DNA from: Pseudomonadota bacterium
GTDB lineage: Bacteria; SAR324; NAC60-12
Reading direction: 5' to 3'
NCBI GenBank assembly: GCA_004213175.1
Contig: SHAT01000006.1
Coordinates: 1-59,212 of the forward strand
Length of the DNA stretch: 59,212 nucleotides
The notes under the pieces were generated by a model. That model worked only from the letters and a program-made list of their open reading frames with translations, was not told the DNA's origin and made no database searches. Shown here piece by piece: positions 24,053 to 29,944 of this stretch (its first letter is position 1; the number at the start of each line of letters is the position of its first letter). The position numbers and the translations under genes were made by a program.

Positions 24053-25420
24053 ATGTCTAATACAATGTTCCCAAATGATTTTCCTCCAATGCCGCAAGAG
24101 TTTATGGATGCTGTTATGGCAGATCCAGGAGCATTTGCTGGTGCAATGGGAGAAGGAATGGAAGCTTTTGGAAGTGCAATGGAAGGTGGCGCCGACATGG
24201 GTGCTGCATTTGAGGCAATGGGTGATGTAATGGGACCCATGTGCGCAGATATGGGGATTTCTCCCGAAGCATTTGATGCTGCTGGTGATGCATTTATGGC
24301 AGTTGCAGGGCCTGCAATGCAGGGCATGCCCCCAGACGCGGGACCTGCTGAAATGGGAGAATGTATTATGGACTGTGCAGAGGTCGCTATGGGAGGACCA
24401 CCTCCTGCTGAATTTGGTGATATGGCTGCAGATATGGCTCAGGGTATGGCAGACATGCCTATGTCTGATGGCGGCTGTCCTCATCACGATGTAGGCGCAG
24501 AAATGGGGCCTCCAATGCCTGATGGTTTCGAACAGGGAAATCCGGAAACTATGCCTCCAGGCGATTTTGGTCCAGGTCCTATGCCTCCTATGGAAGGCGA
24601 TATGGGTGGCTGTACTGGAGATATGGACATGTGTGGTGGTGATATGACAGGTGTAACTGGTGATGTTACCGGATGCATGGGTGATATGACAGGCTGCGAA
24701 GGTGATGTTTCAGCTGTGACAGGTAATATGGGACCAGCAACAGGAGATATGACTGGTTGTGAAGGTAATATGACTGGTTGTGCTGGTGATATGAGTCCTG
24801 TAACAGGTGACGTTTCAGGATGCCATGGCGATATGACTGGTTGTGAAGGTGATATGGGTCCCGTAATGGGAGACTGTTCTCATGTCGAAGGTGACATGAC
24901 TGGCTGCTCCGGTGACATGACTGGTTGCCAAGGTGATATGGGACCAATGTCAGGTGATGTTTCTGGTTGCCAAGGTGACATGACAGGTTGTACTGGTGAC
25001 ATGACTGGTTGCCAGGGTGACATGGGACCTATAATGGGCGACTGCACCAATGTCGAAGGTGATATGACTGGCTGCTCCGGTGACATGACTGGTTGTCAAG
25101 GAGACATGGGACCATATGCTGGTGATATGACTGGCGTTCAAGGTACTCCTCCACCAGATATGATGGGGCCACCTCCAGGTGATATGGATGGTGGTATGGA
25201 TGCCATGGATGATGCTTTCGGTGGTCCTGGATCAGATATGGCTCCTCCACCGGATGATCCAATGGGTGCTGCACTTGACGATTCTGCAGCAACCAGTGAC
25301 GCTGGTGCTGCCGGAGGACAAGGTCCTGGACCAGATCCTATGGCTCCTCAATCTGACCCAGGAATGGATCCAGGAATGGAAAAACCTGAAGACGACGACC
25401 AGGGTGGTGCTATAGGTTAA
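24053..25420 (+). CDS. Acidic Cys/Met-rich protein with 26 Gly-Asp-x-x-Gly/Pro-x-x heptads (putative type I secretion substrate)
   Basis: The 455-residue protein contains no Arg, a single Lys (444), a single Leu (408) and 21 Cys. Residues 1-135 are Ala/Gly/Met-rich and helical-looking, with Cys64, 104 and 108. Residues 182-363 form 26 gapless heptads, mostly GDMTGCx, GDMGPxx, GDVSGCx and GDCxxVE. Residues 364-455 are Pro/Gly/Asp-rich. It has no classical signal peptide. A terminator follows, then an ABC exporter and an HlyD adaptor, so it is probably their exported substrate. The regular Gly-Asp spacing suggests a beta-solenoid or metal-binding array (inference). The frame is supported by GAAGGAG before the ATG and by the perfect repeat phase. 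Confidence 0.85.
   Translation: MSNTMFPNDFPPMPQEFMDAVMADPGAFAGAMGEGMEAFGSAMEGGADMGAAFEAMGDVMGPMCADMGISPEAFDAAGDAFMAVAGPAMQGMPPDAGPAEMGECIMDCAEVAMGGPPPAEFGDMAADMAQGMADMPMSDGGCPHHDVGAEMGPPMPDGFEQGNPETMPPGDFGPGPMPPMEGDMGGCTGDMDMCGGDMTGVTGDVTGCMGDMTGCEGDVSAVTGNMGPATGDMTGCEGNMTGCAGDMSPVTGDVSGCHGDMTGCEGDMGPVMGDCSHVEGDMTGCSGDMTGCQGDMGPMSGDVSGCQGDMTGCTGDMTGCQGDMGPIMGDCTNVEGDMTGCSGDMTGCQGDMGPYAGDMTGVQGTPPPDMMGPPPGDMDGGMDAMDDAFGGPGSDMAPPPDDPMGAALDDSAATSDAGAAGGQGPGPDPMAPQSDPGMDPGMEKPEDDDQGGAIG
24596..25141 (+). repeat. 26 tandem 21-bp units encoding heptads, with a 168-bp higher-order repeat
   Basis: The bases encode residues 182-363 as 26 units of seven codons without a gap. Fifteen units have Cys at position 6 and two have Cys at position 3. 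Units 12-17 (24827-24952) and 20-25 (24995-25120) have the same order of variants, giving an eight-unit, 168-bp super-period. Synonymous codons differ between units, so the repeat is kept at the protein level and is not only a recent DNA slip. Confidence 0.9.
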
Positions 25421-25436
25421 TACCATCTAAGACTAT

Positions 25437-25473
25437 AAAAGTGGTGCACTGAATTTGTTGTGCACCACTTTTT
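25437..25473 (+). terminator. Rho-independent terminator after the repeat-protein gene
   Basis: AAAAGTGGTGCAC (25437-25449) pairs with GTGCACCACTTTT (25460-25472), a 13-bp stem with a 10-base loop followed by T residues. It lies 17 bases after the stop codon and before the exporter genes. Such placement commonly lets the substrate gene be transcribed far above its transporter. Confidence 0.85.
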
Positions 25474-25587
25474 AGACTATTTGTTTATAATTAAAGGTGA
25501 CAAGGTATCTGTCCCGTTAGTTTGAGGCACATCTTCTTTATTCTTCACAAGAACTAATCACAAAACCTTTCTAATAATAGATCAGCT

Positions 25588-27813
25588 ATGTTTGGCAAGA
25601 AAAAAAATGACATTCTTGTTGACCACAGGCTGGCTTACTCTGTCTCCTTAACTACCAGGAGGCATGGAGTATATATAAATCGTGAAGAGGTTGATAAAAA
25701 ATTTCCGGAAAGTGATCCTCCACAAACTATTCGAGAACTAAACAGGTTTCTTGCAGATAAAAAACTTGAAGCAAATCCAATTAATATTTCAATAGATGAT
25801 TTTAAGGACAAAAATTTTGTTTTCCCTTGTGCAGTACCATTCAATAATGGTGAGTCAATAATAGCATTAAGCGTTTTTAAGAAAGAAGATCTTTATTTTA
25901 TTAAGTTTCTTGACCCTTTAGATCCGCAGGCGAGGCAACAGGAAGTCGAAATAAATGAATTTGAGAAGCTTTGGAAAAATATTGTCATTTCAGTAAATGC
26001 ACTTAGAGGTATTGAAAGTAAAGAAAGGCCCTTTGACGTAAAATGGTTCCTTCCTGAATTGTGGAAATGCAGGTACATGCTTCTCTGCGCTTTCATAATT
26101 TCTATCCTACTGAATATATTATCATTTACTCCTATAATTTTCATACAGATTTCCTTAGATAAAGTAGTAGGGTATAAAGCTGTATCCACTTTATATGTTC
26201 TTACAGCAGGAGTTGTTGTTGCACTATTATTTAATGCAATAATGGGTTTTGTTCGTGATTATATTTTTAACTATATTGGAGATATGCTGGAGTCCAGAAT
26301 TGCAACTGATATCTTTGATAAATTATTGGGATTACCATTGATACAAGTTCAAGGGGACAATATTACAAAATTCAATGGCTCAATGCAATCAATTACAGCA
26401 TTAAGGAATACTATCGTCATGAGAGTGTTTAAGGTAGTTTTTGATTTGACTGCTGTTCTTGTTTTTGTCCCAGTCATGTTTGCTTATAATTTACTTATGG
26501 GCATTATAGTGCTTGGATTTGCATTATTGATGGGTTTTAACAAAATCATTTTTAACAATATTGCGAACAAATCACCAGAAATTCTTAACGGAGTTGAAAA
26601 TAGTAAAAACAGCCTGATTCGTGAAACTTTGCATGGAATGACAATGTTAAAGGAGTTTGAAGAGGAAGAATCAGAGAGGAAAAATTGGAGAAAATCTGCT
26701 GCGGCTTCAATTATACTAAGATCAAAGAAAAATCAGTCAAACAGTACATCTACAGAGATTAATGGTTTCCTTCAACAAGCCATGACAATTACAATTATCT
26801 TCACTGGGGTACAATTGGTTTTTGCTGAGCAACTTTCTGCTGGTTCAATCATTGCGATTAATATGGTCGCTGGGAAATTAACATCACCGATTATTGCAGC
26901 GATTACTTTATATGGTGAAAGAAGCCAATTTTTAACCCTCATGTCTCGTATAAGTGACATTTGGGACAAGGGGAGTGAACAGATGGGGGCAGGAGTTCAC
27001 TCAACTATAAGTGGGAAATATATTTTTGAAAATGTTTCAATGAGTTTTGGGGATGTAAAAGCATTAAACGGATTATCTTTTGAACTTACCCCCAAATCCA
27101 AAGTTGCAGTAGTAGGTCCTACGGGGGCGGGTAAAAGTACATTGCTAAATATGATTGCAGGAACGTATCGTCCTACAGAGGGAAAAATGGAAATTGATGG
27201 AGTAGGATTCAATCAATATGATTTGTCATATTATCGTTCACAGGTAATGCTTTTGGATAAAAACCCCATTTTTTTTAAAGGTACAATTGAAGATAATATG
27301 TCTCGGGTCACACATAACATCGGCAAAAATGAACTTGCACACATTTTTGCTTTAACAGGATTTGATGAACACCTTCAAAAACTACCTGAAGGTATTCATA
27401 CAGAAATCGATGAAACAGCCACCCAATTAGCTGGAGGGGCAGCTAGCCTGCTGGCACTATCTAGGGCTTTGCTTGCAAATCCTAAGGTATTGCTTTTGGA
27501 TGAGTTTGCGGATTCACTGGATATTGATACTAGAATTAAATTACAAGATAACTTTTCTTCTATAACTACTGATAGGGCGGTAGTGGATGCTCAAAATGTT
27601 ATTAGCCATGAATTAGATTCAATTTCGAATTACGATAAGATTATTGTATTGGATGGAGGGAAAGTGGTTGGCCAAGGTAAGCATGATCGCTTACTTATTG
27701 ATTGTGAAGTTTATAGGCAAATGTTGGAAAAAGAAAAAAAATTAAGTGAAATTGGAGATTCAAAAACTGCAATGTCAAAGGATCTATCTCACATAGAAAA
27801 AGATAATTTTTAG
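25588..27813 (+). CDS. ABC exporter with degenerate C39-like domain (type I secretion ATPase)
   Basis: The 741-residue HlyB/LapB-type exporter has an N-terminal C39-like region (about 1-140, ending FLDPLDP..EINEFEKLW) without a catalytic Cys near its start, so it should bind rather than cut substrate. A transmembrane domain spans about 160-445 and an ATPase domain about 478-715. Walker A is GPTGAGKST (510-518), Walker B LLLDEF (635-640) and the switch His is His674. The signature is LAGGA (614-618) where LSGGQ is usual, and the Q-loop Gln is Lys558. It would export the upstream repeat protein with the HlyD partner; TolC is not encoded here. ATPase activity may be atypical. Confidence 0.85.
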   Translation: MFGKKKNDILVDHRLAYSVSLTTRRHGVYINREEVDKKFPESDPPQTIRELNRFLADKKLEANPINISIDDFKDKNFVFPCAVPFNNGESIIALSVFKKEDLYFIKFLDPLDPQARQQEVEINEFEKLWKNIVISVNALRGIESKERPFDVKWFLPELWKCRYMLLCAFIISILLNILSFTPIIFIQISLDKVVGYKAVSTLYVLTAGVVVALLFNAIMGFVRDYIFNYIGDMLESRIATDIFDKLLGLPLIQVQGDNITKFNGSMQSITALRNTIVMRVFKVVFDLTAVLVFVPVMFAYNLLMGIIVLGFALLMGFNKIIFNNIANKSPEILNGVENSKNSLIRETLHGMTMLKEFEEEESERKNWRKSAAASIILRSKKNQSNSTSTEINGFLQQAMTITIIFTGVQLVFAEQLSAGSIIAINMVAGKLTSPIIAAITLYGERSQFLTLMSRISDIWDKGSEQMGAGVHSTISGKYIFENVSMSFGDVKALNGLSFELTPKSKVAVVGPTGAGKSTLLNMIAGTYRPTEGKMEIDGVGFNQYDLSYYRSQVMLLDKNPIFFKGTIEDNMSRVTHNIGKNELAHIFALTGFDEHLQKLPEGIHTEIDETATQLAGGAASLLALSRALLANPKVLLLDEFADSLDIDTRIKLQDNFSSITTDRAVVDAQNVISHELDSISNYDKIIVLDGGKVVGQGKHDRLLIDCEVYRQMLEKEKKLSEIGDSKTAMSKDLSHIEKDNF

Positions 27814-27829
27814 TTTTGGAAATTCTTAA

Positions 27830-29578
27830 ATGGTTGTAGCAACAAACACACTGAAACCTCAATTATTAGTGGTGAAAAAAGGTGAGTATGTCTTTGAGGA
27901 AGGAGACGAAGCAGTATTTGCCTATGTCCTTACTGAAGGTGTAATTGAGATTGTTGCGATTATGAAGGGAGAAGAACAGGTTCTTGGGAAAGTAGAAAAA
28001 GGAACCGTTTTTGGAGAAATGGCAATAATTGATGGCTTCCCAAGAAGTGCATCTGCTCGCGCTGAAGTTGATTGTAAAGTACAAGAAGTGGGGCACAAAG
28101 AATTTCTTAATTATATCTCTAAAAAACCAGATGCTGCGTTCATGATAATGACTAGATTGTCTGGTTTTGTCCGGTCTGCTGATAAAAAAGCAAGTGAAAG
28201 TTTTTTACTTCGTAAAACAGGTTCTAATGATCAAAATAATGATCAAAATAATGATCAAACAGACATTGCCGCTGTACATAATTTTGAAGACACGGAATCT
28301 ATTTATGCAAGGCCTCCTTCAAAACCAGTAATCATAACTGCTGCCGGCCTACTAATATTCACTTTGTGCATGGTGTTATGGTCATCTTTTTCTTTTGTTG
28401 ATAAGACAGTCTCTGCACGTGGTAAATTCACTAATACTGCACCAAATATTGAAATTCAATCTACCGGAAGTTCAATTATTGAGGAATTAAATTTAGATCG
28501 AGGTCAATTCATAAAAAAAGGTGAAACAGTAGCAGTACTTGATGGTACTGTGGTGAACGCCAATCTCAAAATTACTAGAGACAAAATATACGCTGTAAAA
28601 AATAAAATATTACGACTGGAACTTCAAAAAAATTCAATCTTAAATAAATCTTTAAATAAGGATTTGTCTGGCCAACTAGACCGTATTAATGAAGAAATAC
28701 TTTATAAAAATTTTGATGAGTTTATGATTAAAATGAAAACATTTTCTTCTGATCTATTGCGCTTGGAATCGGAAATTGTTTCAATTAATGCAGATAAAGA
28801 ATTAATACGTGACCAACTGGATATAAAAATTAAAATTGAAGAAGGTAAAAAGAAATTGTTTGAGAAAAATGTTGGCACCTTAATGGATACGTTAAGTTCA
28901 ACCGATCAAAGAATTTCTGTAAACCGTCAATTATTGACAACAACTGGAAGTATCGAAAAGTTGAAATCGGAAAAAATATCAATTATGGATAAGAAATCTT
29001 CTTATTTGACGGGTGAATTAGTCAAAATAGCACAGGAGCTTTCTTCTTTTAATGATCAATTACTTCAATTGAACGAGGAATTAATTAAAAATGAATTAGA
29101 GAGGAGTAATTTATTTGTTAAATCTCCAGTTGAAGGTGTAGTATTAAATTTACCGACTGTGACTATCGGGTCTCTTATTAATAAAGGTGAACCAATAGTT
29201 ACACTAGTTAGAACAGGGCTACCTCTTGTTTTGGAGATTGATGTAGACCCAAAAGATGCCAGTGATTTGTATAATGGTAATCCTGTTTCTGTCAAAATTG
29301 ATGCGTTACCATTTCAACAGTTTGGAGACTTGGCTGGAACCTTAACATATATATCAGATGACACTGTAGAAGAGTCTCTTCAGGGAGAATCTGGAGCTTT
29401 TTATCGTGGTCGTGTTAATGTAGAAGAATCTGAGCTTGTTGGATTGCCTGAAGAATTTGATTTAACGCCAGGTATGCTTGCAAGTGCAGATTTAAAAGTT
29501 GGCAAAAGAAGATTGATTACATATTTTACAAATCCAATTTTAAAATCTCTATCAAGTGCAATGCGTGAGCCCGATTGA
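27830..29578 (+). CDS. HlyD-family membrane fusion protein with N-terminal cyclic-nucleotide-binding domain
   Basis: The 582-residue protein begins with a CRP-type cNMP-binding domain (about 10-115) carrying the phosphate-binding cassette FGEMAIIDGFPRSASA at 61-76. A linker with NDQN repeats leads to one membrane helix (about 167-189). Then follow an HlyD barrel/lipoyl region (GSSIIEELNLDRGQFIKKGE), a long coiled coil, and the closing FVKSPVEGVVLNLPTVTIGS barrel. The topology places the cNMP domain in the cytoplasm and the adaptor in the periplasm. It lies 16 bases after the ABC gene, so the two form an operon. The fusion suggests that export responds to cAMP or cGMP. Confidence 0.88.
   Translation: MVVATNTLKPQLLVVKKGEYVFEEGDEAVFAYVLTEGVIEIVAIMKGEEQVLGKVEKGTVFGEMAIIDGFPRSASARAEVDCKVQEVGHKEFLNYISKKPDAAFMIMTRLSGFVRSADKKASESFLLRKTGSNDQNNDQNNDQTDIAAVHNFEDTESIYARPPSKPVIITAAGLLIFTLCMVLWSSFSFVDKTVSARGKFTNTAPNIEIQSTGSSIIEELNLDRGQFIKKGETVAVLDGTVVNANLKITRDKIYAVKNKILRLELQKNSILNKSLNKDLSGQLDRINEEILYKNFDEFMIKMKTFSSDLLRLESEIVSINADKELIRDQLDIKIKIEEGKKKLFEKNVGTLMDTLSSTDQRISVNRQLLTTTGSIEKLKSEKISIMDKKSSYLTGELVKIAQELSSFNDQLLQLNEELIKNELERSNLFVKSPVEGVVLNLPTVTIGSLINKGEPIVTLVRTGLPLVLEIDVDPKDASDLYNGNPVSVKIDALPFQQFGDLAGTLTYISDDTVEESLQGESGAFYRGRVNVEESELVGLPEEFDLTPGMLASADLKVGKRRLITYFTNPILKSLSSAMREPD
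28226..28259 (+). repeat. 12-bp tandem repeat in the linker of the cNMP-HlyD gene
   Basis: AATGATCAAAAT occurs twice in full and a third time in part, encoding N-D-Q-N units at residues 133-143 between the cNMP domain and the membrane helix. The unit is a multiple of three, so copy-number changes would alter linker length without breaking the frame. Confidence 0.8.
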
Positions 29579-29944
29579 TACTATGCTAACGCTACTTCGA
29601 CTATAGTAACATTAGAAAGTGTGAACCTCTCCGGCTAGGTATTTAACTCCAAAAACTAACACTATTTTTTTCAAAGTCAGAAACCTCAGAGTAAAATCAA
29701 CACTTACTTACCAATATATGATTGTATATATTTAATCACAATTAAGAATCCTTCCCTGTAGACTAACGTTGTTAAATTAAATAAAAGATGTTATGTTTTT
29801 TTCTTTTCATTTATCGAATTCGTTGGTAATTCAGAGCAGGGATATGGCCGTCTTTTTTAGAAAAATAATAAAAAATAGCTTTAAAAAATACAAAAGATAA
29901 ATTTCAAATTTTTATAACAAAATACTCTGAATTAGAATGTTCCT
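29579..29944. other. Intergenic region after the secretion operon, no gene seen
   Basis: The 366-base AT-rich interval has no supported ORF and no convincing terminator. A weak inverted repeat (TACTAT...ATAGTA) lies just after the HlyD stop but lacks a T tract. Confidence 0.4.

What the first reader, a model, noticed from the sequence alone, without database searches (positions are those of the whole stretch)
24053..29578. Dedicated secretion locus for a heptad-repeat Cys/Met/Asp-rich protein
The three adjacent genes encode a protein with 26 gapless heptads (consensus Gly-Asp-Met-Thr-Gly-Cys-X), an ABC exporter and an HlyD-type adaptor. Seen in the sequence: exact repeat phase, 21 Cys, no Arg, one Lys, one Leu, a strong terminator after gene 1 and tight spacing of genes 2-3. 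Inference: this is a type I secretion system for a repeat protein that could form a beta-solenoid (three heptads per turn would be 21 residues) or a thiol/metal-binding surface polymer. I recognise no named family with this heptad.
Basis: partly seen in the sequence, partly recalled or inferred. Interest (0 to 1): 0.85.

Follow-up and report, generated by a model that had tools for sequence, protein, structure and literature searches.

The report
Marine bacterial exporter with repeat-protein cargo
In an uncultured ocean bacterium (SAR324), three neighbouring genes encode what looks like a one-step export pump whose adaptor carries a built-in cyclic-nucleotide sensor, plus its likely cargo: an almost Lys/Arg-free protein whose 26 seven-residue repeats are predicted to wind into a thin beta-solenoid. 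The same pump and a related cargo recur in an unrelated marine group.

Summary
In detail: a 455-aa protein (24053-25420) with 26 gapless heptads, an ABC exporter (25588-27813) and an HlyD-type adaptor (27830-29578). The type I secretion reading is well supported. The cassette recurs in several SAR324 genomes and, with rearranged gene order, in one family of marine beta-proteobacteria, with a Lys/Arg-poor acidic protein alongside. That cargo shares an unnamed ~80-aa helical module across the two lineages; the heptads are a SAR324 elaboration. New here: (1) the adaptor has an N-terminal cyclic-nucleotide-binding domain with the ligand-contacting Glu and Arg kept; (2) the exporter has a non-catalytic C39-like domain and a degenerate ATPase signature and Q-loop; (3) heptad positions 3 and 6 are hydrophobic in 92/93 and 93/93 repeats, with Cys swapping with Val/Ala/Ile, so Cys and Met look like core residues rather than a metal-binding surface; (4) structure prediction gives a regular beta-solenoid, more likely two heptads (14 residues) per turn than three; (5) the same heptad type (GDCTGLx) exists in phage contigs. 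Best view: a regulated T1SS variant exporting an extracellular, rod-like acidic protein. Its role outside the cell is inferred, not shown.

The parts
24053..25420 (+). Putative exported cargo protein, 455 aa, acidic, one Lys, no Arg
   Evidence: ORF with AGAAGGAGA ribosome-binding site; composition; dN/dS 0.06-0.16; homologues beside ABC/HlyD in other genomes
24092..24388 (+). N-terminal helical module, about residues 14-112 (A..AF..A.EGG....AF.A), shared with the beta-proteobacterial cargo proteins; no Pfam family
   Evidence: AF2 pLDDT about 90; profile from SAR324 finds all five beta cargos at 97-134 bits against at most 29.7 in 180 shuffles
24596..25141 (+). 26 gapless heptads G-D-[M/V]-[T/S]-G-[C/V]-x, predicted parallel beta-solenoid
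   Evidence: Direct reading; AF2 pLDDT 82.7, pTM 0.72; Foldseek hits to parallel beta-helices
25142..25417 (+). Acidic Pro/Gly/Asp/Met-rich C-terminal tail, likely disordered; candidate uncleaved secretion signal (inferred)
   Evidence: Kept in SAR324 homologues L004-L007 and L052, including those lacking the helical module; similarity to beta-lineage tails only marginal (34-59 bits against up to 48 in shuffles)
25440..25475 (+). Hairpin terminator after the cargo gene
   Evidence: -20.0 kcal/mol, 13-bp stem, U-run; a hairpin-forming sequence at the same place in L004-L007
25588..27813 (+). ABC exporter, 741 aa, HlyB/LssB-like, with N-terminal C39-like domain lacking the catalytic Cys; degenerate signature (LAGGA) and Q-loop
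   Evidence: PF00664, PF00005; TIGR03375 E 1.7e-106 but 357 bits, below its 693-bit cut-off; HlyB closest in PDB; motif alignment
27830..29578 (+). HlyD-family periplasmic adaptor, 582 aa, with N-terminal cyclic-nucleotide-binding domain
   Evidence: TIGR01843 254.7 bits, above its 208.65 cut-off; PF00027 E 2.3e-19, residues 14-98; HlyD (8dck) closest in PDB
27869..28123 (+). cNMP-binding domain of the adaptor; motif FGEMAIIDGFPRSASARA keeps the Glu and Arg that contact the ligand
   Evidence: PF00027; Glu and Arg conserved in all nine SAR324 and beta adaptors aligned

Best explanation
The locus is a self-contained variant type I secretion cassette. The ABC exporter (C39-like docking domain, no leader cleavage) and the HlyD adaptor, with a TolC supplied from elsewhere in the genome, move the neighbouring acidic protein out of the cell in one step. 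The adaptor's cytosolic cyclic-nucleotide-binding domain gates or tunes the pump (inferred by analogy with HetC). The cargo is unfolded inside the cell. Outside, it folds into an N-terminal helical head, a thin beta-solenoid rod of about 13 turns with two heptads per turn, and a flexible acidic tail. Position 3 (Met/Val) and position 6 (Cys/Val) of each heptad pack the core; Thr/Ser, Asp and the variable residue face solvent. The most likely role is an extracellular structural or surface-display protein whose middle section is a swappable spacer. Shown by computation: domains, gene linkage, shared helical module, purifying selection, core pattern. Inferred: export, solenoid turn size and handedness, gating, extracellular role.
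For: Gene linkage kept in SAR324 L004, L005, L006, L007, L008 and in beta genomes L009, L010, L012, L054; in the betas the cargo gene lies just after hlyD rather than before the ABC gene, so linkage survives rearrangement. In a search by HlyD, 8 of 16 other SAR324 genomes of the genus have a match and none of the genomes outside the genus; the CNBD-HlyD N-terminus is absent from all 24 genomes of the same order outside the genus; 5 of 26 genomes of the beta family have the cargo. HlyB and HlyD are the closest solved relatives; CLD without catalytic Cys. One OEP/TolC gene elsewhere in the genome. Almost no Lys/Arg across cargos. Helical-module homology. Heptad core: position 3 hydrophobic 92/93, position 6 93/93. 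AF2 heptad model pLDDT 82.7, pTM 0.72. Repeat autocorrelation at lag 4 (z 3.5) in the window and lag 2 (z 3.0) in L052, no lag-3 peak in these. Eight class III nucleotidyl cyclase matches in the genome. Precedent: HetC, a C39 exporter with an N-terminal cNMP domain that binds ppGpp and is needed in vivo (PMC10986499).
Against: Export is not shown. The ABC signature and Q-loop are degenerate, so ATPase activity may be weak or need a partner. Three of five AF2 models of the heptads were poor (about 47-51), the alignment for that run contained overlapping pieces of the window itself, and the full-length run was below 50 for most of the repeats. Foldseek TM-scores are low (0.14-0.45). The tail is not demonstrably a signal: its similarity between lineages is marginal. 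L006 lacks heptads and the helical module, L005 lacks the helical module and the beta cargos lack heptads, so neither part is universal.
Confidence: 0.62

Rival explanations
1. The repeat protein is a secreted thiol/metal-binding polymer, with Cys and Met chelating metals on the repeat face.
For: 17 of the 21 Cys lie in the heptads, and Met makes up 14% of the protein.
Against: Cys and Met occupy the two hydrophobic positions and interchange with Val, Ala, Ile and Leu between repeats and homologues. L052 has 3 Cys in 17 heptads; L006 and L010 cargos have 0-1 Cys.
Confidence: 0.08
2. The Asp of each heptad makes a calcium-dependent solenoid, functionally like an RTX beta-roll: unfolded inside the cell, folding in the calcium of sea water. 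This is a refinement of the best explanation and partly overlaps it.
For: Asp at position 2 in 87/93 heptads; acidic, Lys/Arg-free composition; HlyB/HlyD-like pump.
Against: No RTX family hit. Phage heptads of the same type can use Asn more than Asp (L063: 12 Asn, 4 Asp), so the fold need not depend on the carboxylate.
Confidence: 0.2
3. The cargo is a signalling or antagonistic (bacteriocin-like) protein, secreted under cyclic-nucleotide control.
For: Sub-threshold matches of the exporter and adaptor to NHLP and bacteriocin systems; HetC precedent; patchy distribution and an apparent deletion remnant in L013.
Against: No catalytic C39 Cys; no immunity or processing gene seen beside it; low-complexity repeats are unlike known bacteriocins.
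Confidence: 0.12
4. The solenoid is an ice-binding or ice-recrystallisation-inhibiting beta-roll, convergent with grass antifreeze protein.
For: Weak LbR_Ice_bind match in L007 (E 0.043, below cut-off); small turn size and an outward Thr/Ser row.
Against: The window protein itself has no match; SAR324 is mainly pelagic (own knowledge); the beta cargos lack heptads.
Confidence: 0.03
5. The neighbouring protein is not the substrate of this pump; the linkage is incidental.
For: A terminator separates gene 1 from genes 2-3; the transporter substrate is unproven.
Against: Linkage persists in two lineages with different gene order.
Confidence: 0.07

Closest known systems
HlyB/HlyD/TolC type I secretion system
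   Same: ABC exporter with non-catalytic C39-like domain, HlyD-family adaptor, TolC unlinked, substrate gene adjacent
   Different: Adaptor carries an N-terminal cNMP-binding domain; ABC signature and Q-loop are degenerate; substrate has no RTX nonapeptides
HetC of Nostoc (C39 exporter with N-terminal cNMP-binding domain; PMC10986499)
   Same: Export pump with a cytosolic cNMP-binding domain
   Different: In HetC the domain is on the ABC protein with an active C39 peptidase; here it is on the adaptor and the peptidase site is lost
GDCTGLx heptad proteins of phage contigs (L059, L062-L067)
   Same: Heptad G-[D/N]-[C/V]-[T/S]-[G/S]-[L/V]-x in gapless arrays
   Different: Short, Lys/Arg-containing, secretion genes not looked for in detail, function unknown
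RTX beta-roll proteins
   Same: Acidic, repeat-rich, type I exported, parallel beta-roll
   Different: RTX repeat is a calcium-binding nonapeptide, 18 residues per turn (own knowledge); here heptads, about 14 residues per turn (inferred)
Grass ice-binding beta-roll (PF21300)
   Same: Short-turn solenoid from a repeated unit with hydrophobic core positions
   Different: Only a sub-threshold match in one homologue; no evidence of ice binding

Membership tests
Type I secretion system (HlyB/HlyD type) | ABC exporter with ABC_membrane and ABC_tran domains | tested here: met
   PF00664 E 2.3e-24, PF00005 E 8.3e-25; HlyB closest in PDB
Type I secretion system (HlyB/HlyD type) | HlyD-family adaptor | tested here: met
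   TIGR01843 254.7 bits over cut-off 208.65
Type I secretion system (HlyB/HlyD type) | TolC-type outer membrane factor available | tested here: met
   One OEP gene on contig C40
Type I secretion system (HlyB/HlyD type) | Canonical ABC signature LSGGQ and Q-loop Gln (typical of ABC exporters, not part of the T1SS definition) | tested here: not met
   LAGGA in SAR324, LPSSY/LPNSY in betas; Q-loop Gln replaced by Lys or Ala
Type I secretion system (HlyB/HlyD type) | Substrate carries an uncleaved C-terminal signal | tested here: inconclusive
   Tail kept within SAR324, marginal between lineages
Type I secretion system (HlyB/HlyD type) | Substrate found outside the cell in a pump-dependent way | not testable with these tools
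   Needs an experiment
RTX protein | GGxGxDxUx nonapeptide repeats | tested here: not met
   No RTX/HemolysinCabind match in Pfam; repeats are heptads
Peptidase-containing ABC transporter (PCAT) | Catalytic Cys in the C39 domain | tested here: not met
   No conserved Cys at the N-terminal catalytic position in the 11 exporters aligned (Cys 18 in some SAR324 members is Ser in the window and in the betas); PF03412 17.1 bits, below cut-off 22
cNMP-binding domain proteins | PF00027 fold with Glu and Arg of the phosphate-binding cassette | tested here: met
   PF00027 69.6 bits over 27.5; motif conserved in nine adaptors
cNMP-binding domain proteins | Binds a nucleotide | not testable with these tools
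   Needs a binding assay
Parallel beta-solenoid | Regular short strands at repeat period, parallel coil | tested here: inconclusive
   AF2 (pLDDT 82.7, two of five models good) and Foldseek matches at low TM-score; prediction only
LbR_Ice_bind (PF21300) | Match above gathering score | tested here: not met
   14.4 bits against 30 in L007; none for the window protein

The most novel reading that the evidence does not exclude
A new subtype of type I secretion in which export is gated by a cyclic nucleotide bound to the adaptor's cytosolic domain and driven by an ABC protein with degenerate catalytic motifs, dedicated to nearly Lys/Arg-free proteins that, in SAR324, fold outside the cell into a 14-residue-per-turn beta-solenoid not previously solved. 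The subtype has been exchanged between SAR324 and a beta-proteobacterial family.
Probability: 0.35. Interest if true: 0.75.

Novelty: new variant of a known kind. Interest (0 to 1): 0.55.

Why it matters
If export is gated through the adaptor, it would be a direct link from a cyclic-nucleotide signal to a one-step secretion pump, which the T1SS review read here does not mention ('cyclic nucleotide' has no occurrence in the part of PMC8277102 held). The heptad is a simple repeat with no Pfam family, predicted to form a thin coil, and is open to structure determination. SAR324 is widespread in the ocean and uncultured (own knowledge), and its secreted proteins are little described.

Tried and rejected
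phrog_19577 'minor head protein' match (E 4.7e-17): the Bacillus phage proteins are TDVSTLK-type heptads that look like coiled coils, so I treat this as shared seven-residue periodicity, not homology. RiPP_TigB match (E 0.017, cut-off not met): compositional. Plasmid hits in Burkholderia and Cupriavidus: low-complexity DNA or unrelated repeats. Cytoplasmic repeat family: no named family in Pfam, NCBIfam or PDB sequence searches. Helical module in PDB or in 369 genomes of the class of the beta host: nothing beyond the query genome. Viral-contig scans with the window heptads and with the helical module: nothing. C-terminal tail as a cross-lineage homologous signal: only marginally above shuffles. 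Literature on SAR324 with T1SS, on cNMP domains fused to HlyD, and on the heptad: no relevant paper found.
Full report
WHAT IS THERE. The three ORFs exist at the stated coordinates. The first encodes 455 residues with one Lys, no Arg, one Leu, 21 Cys, 64 Met, 60 Asp and 97 Gly. Twenty-six heptads follow one another without a gap from residue 182 to 363 (window 24596-25141). The window belongs to a 2.27-Mb, 83%-complete genome; its closest named relatives are SAR324 cluster MAGs.

THE PUMP. Gene 2 is an ABC exporter whose nearest solved relative is HlyB and whose best NCBIfam model is the LssB T1SS subfamily, though far below that model's cut-off (357 against 693 bits). Its N-terminal domain resembles C39 peptidase below threshold and lacks the catalytic Cys, like the CLD of HlyB described in PMC8277102. 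Its signature motif reads LAGGA where HlyB has LSGGQ, and the Q-loop Gln is Lys; the beta homologues read LPSSY or LPNSY and Ala. Walker A, the Walker B Glu and the H-loop His are kept. Gene 3 is a HlyD-family adaptor above its curated cut-off with an N-terminal cyclic-nucleotide-binding domain (PF00027, E 2.3e-19), whose Glu and Arg are conserved in all nine adaptors aligned. The genome has one TolC-type gene elsewhere and eight class III nucleotidyl cyclase matches.

DISTRIBUTION AND LINKAGE. Within SAR324 the cassette is in about half of the genomes of one genus and was not found in the 24 other genomes of the order. Many of these genomes are incomplete, so absence is not proof. A homologous cassette is in 5 of 26 genomes of one marine beta-proteobacterial family when searched by cargo. 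There an AraC-type gene precedes the ABC gene and the cargo gene follows hlyD, by 35 to 91 bases in the three loci examined. The cargo is adjacent to the pump wherever both lie on one contig; in G001 (L052/L003) the contigs end between cargo and pump. In L013 the same genomic site as the window carries only the last quarter of hlyD, apparently a natural deletion.

THE CARGO FAMILY. A profile of the SAR324 helical module finds the five beta cargos at E 1e-16 to 1e-24 among 280 ORFs and no composition-shuffled copy; with the composition correction off, 97-134 bits against at most 29.7. In the betas the module occurs twice. L005 and L006 lack it, and L006 and the betas lack heptads. So the cargo is modular: head, swappable middle, acidic tail. 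The tail is conserved within SAR324; between lineages its similarity barely exceeds shuffles. Purifying selection is seen in all three genes.

THE REPEAT. Over 93 heptads of five SAR324 proteins, position 1 is always Gly, position 2 Asp (87) or Asn (5), position 3 hydrophobic in 92 (Met, Val, Cys), position 4 Thr/Ser in 77, position 6 hydrophobic in all 93 (Cys 44, Val 32), position 7 polar in most. Phage-contig proteins with the same pattern have Cys at position 3 and Leu at position 6. This is a core pattern, and Cys is one of several interchangeable core residues. AF2 on the repeat region gives pLDDT 82.7 and pTM 0.72 with a seven-residue strand period, though only two of five models reach such confidence. 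Foldseek places it among parallel beta-helices and pentapeptide solenoids with low TM. The gapped alignments to targets of roughly 24 residues per turn span about 330 columns for 196 residues, which fits 14 turns of 14 residues (inference; I had no coordinates to measure). Heptad autocorrelation peaks at lag 4 and 8 in the window and at lag 2 in L052, not at 3, although recent duplications could contribute and other homologues show other peaks. I therefore prefer two heptads per turn, with moderate confidence.

HOW IT LIKELY WORKS. Inference: the cargo is made in quantity (strong ribosome-binding site, own terminator), docks on the C39-like domain, and is passed through ABC, HlyD and TolC. The adaptor's nucleotide-binding domain senses a cyclic nucleotide or ppGpp, as HetC does in Nostoc (PMC10986499). 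Outside, the chain folds into head, rod and tail and serves as an extracellular or surface structural protein. Calcium may help folding in sea water, but the Asn-rich versions in phages suggest that Asp is not essential to the repeat.

VERDICT. The metal-polymer and three-heptads-per-turn readings are not. The finding is a new variant of a known kind, with an unusual adaptor fusion, an unusual ATPase, and a repeat with no named family.

Noticed in passing
L013:3363-3862 (site matches window 23295 and 29171-29585): A SAR324 relative keeps only the last part of hlyD at the same site; cargo, ABC and the rest of hlyD are missing, an apparent natural deletion (or assembly loss).
   Followed up: partly
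L008:3959-7644: Two tandem cargo genes precede the pump in FRAM18_bin343; many frameshifts suggest sequencing errors or decay.
   Followed up: no
L059:1417-1818, L062, L063, L065, L067: Phage contigs encode gapless GDCTGLx / GDVTGLx heptad proteins of unknown function.
   Followed up: partly
L009, L010, L012, L054: A gene directly upstream of the ABC gene in the beta-proteobacterial cassettes (AraC-type regulator by Pfam in L009 and L010); none seen beside the SAR324 cassettes.
   Followed up: partly
L005:5058-7587, L052:1556-4202: In other SAR324 genomes the cassette follows a gene that looks like the site-2 protease rseP, whereas in the window it lies near pheT; the cassette's location differs between species.
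   Followed up: partly
L027 and L029 (G099): One beta genome carries two CNBD-HlyD adaptors on separate contigs.
   Followed up: no
L006:6622-7598: Cargo gene with PPPGGEPGPEAG repeats in place of heptads, apparently frameshifted within the repeats.
   Followed up: no
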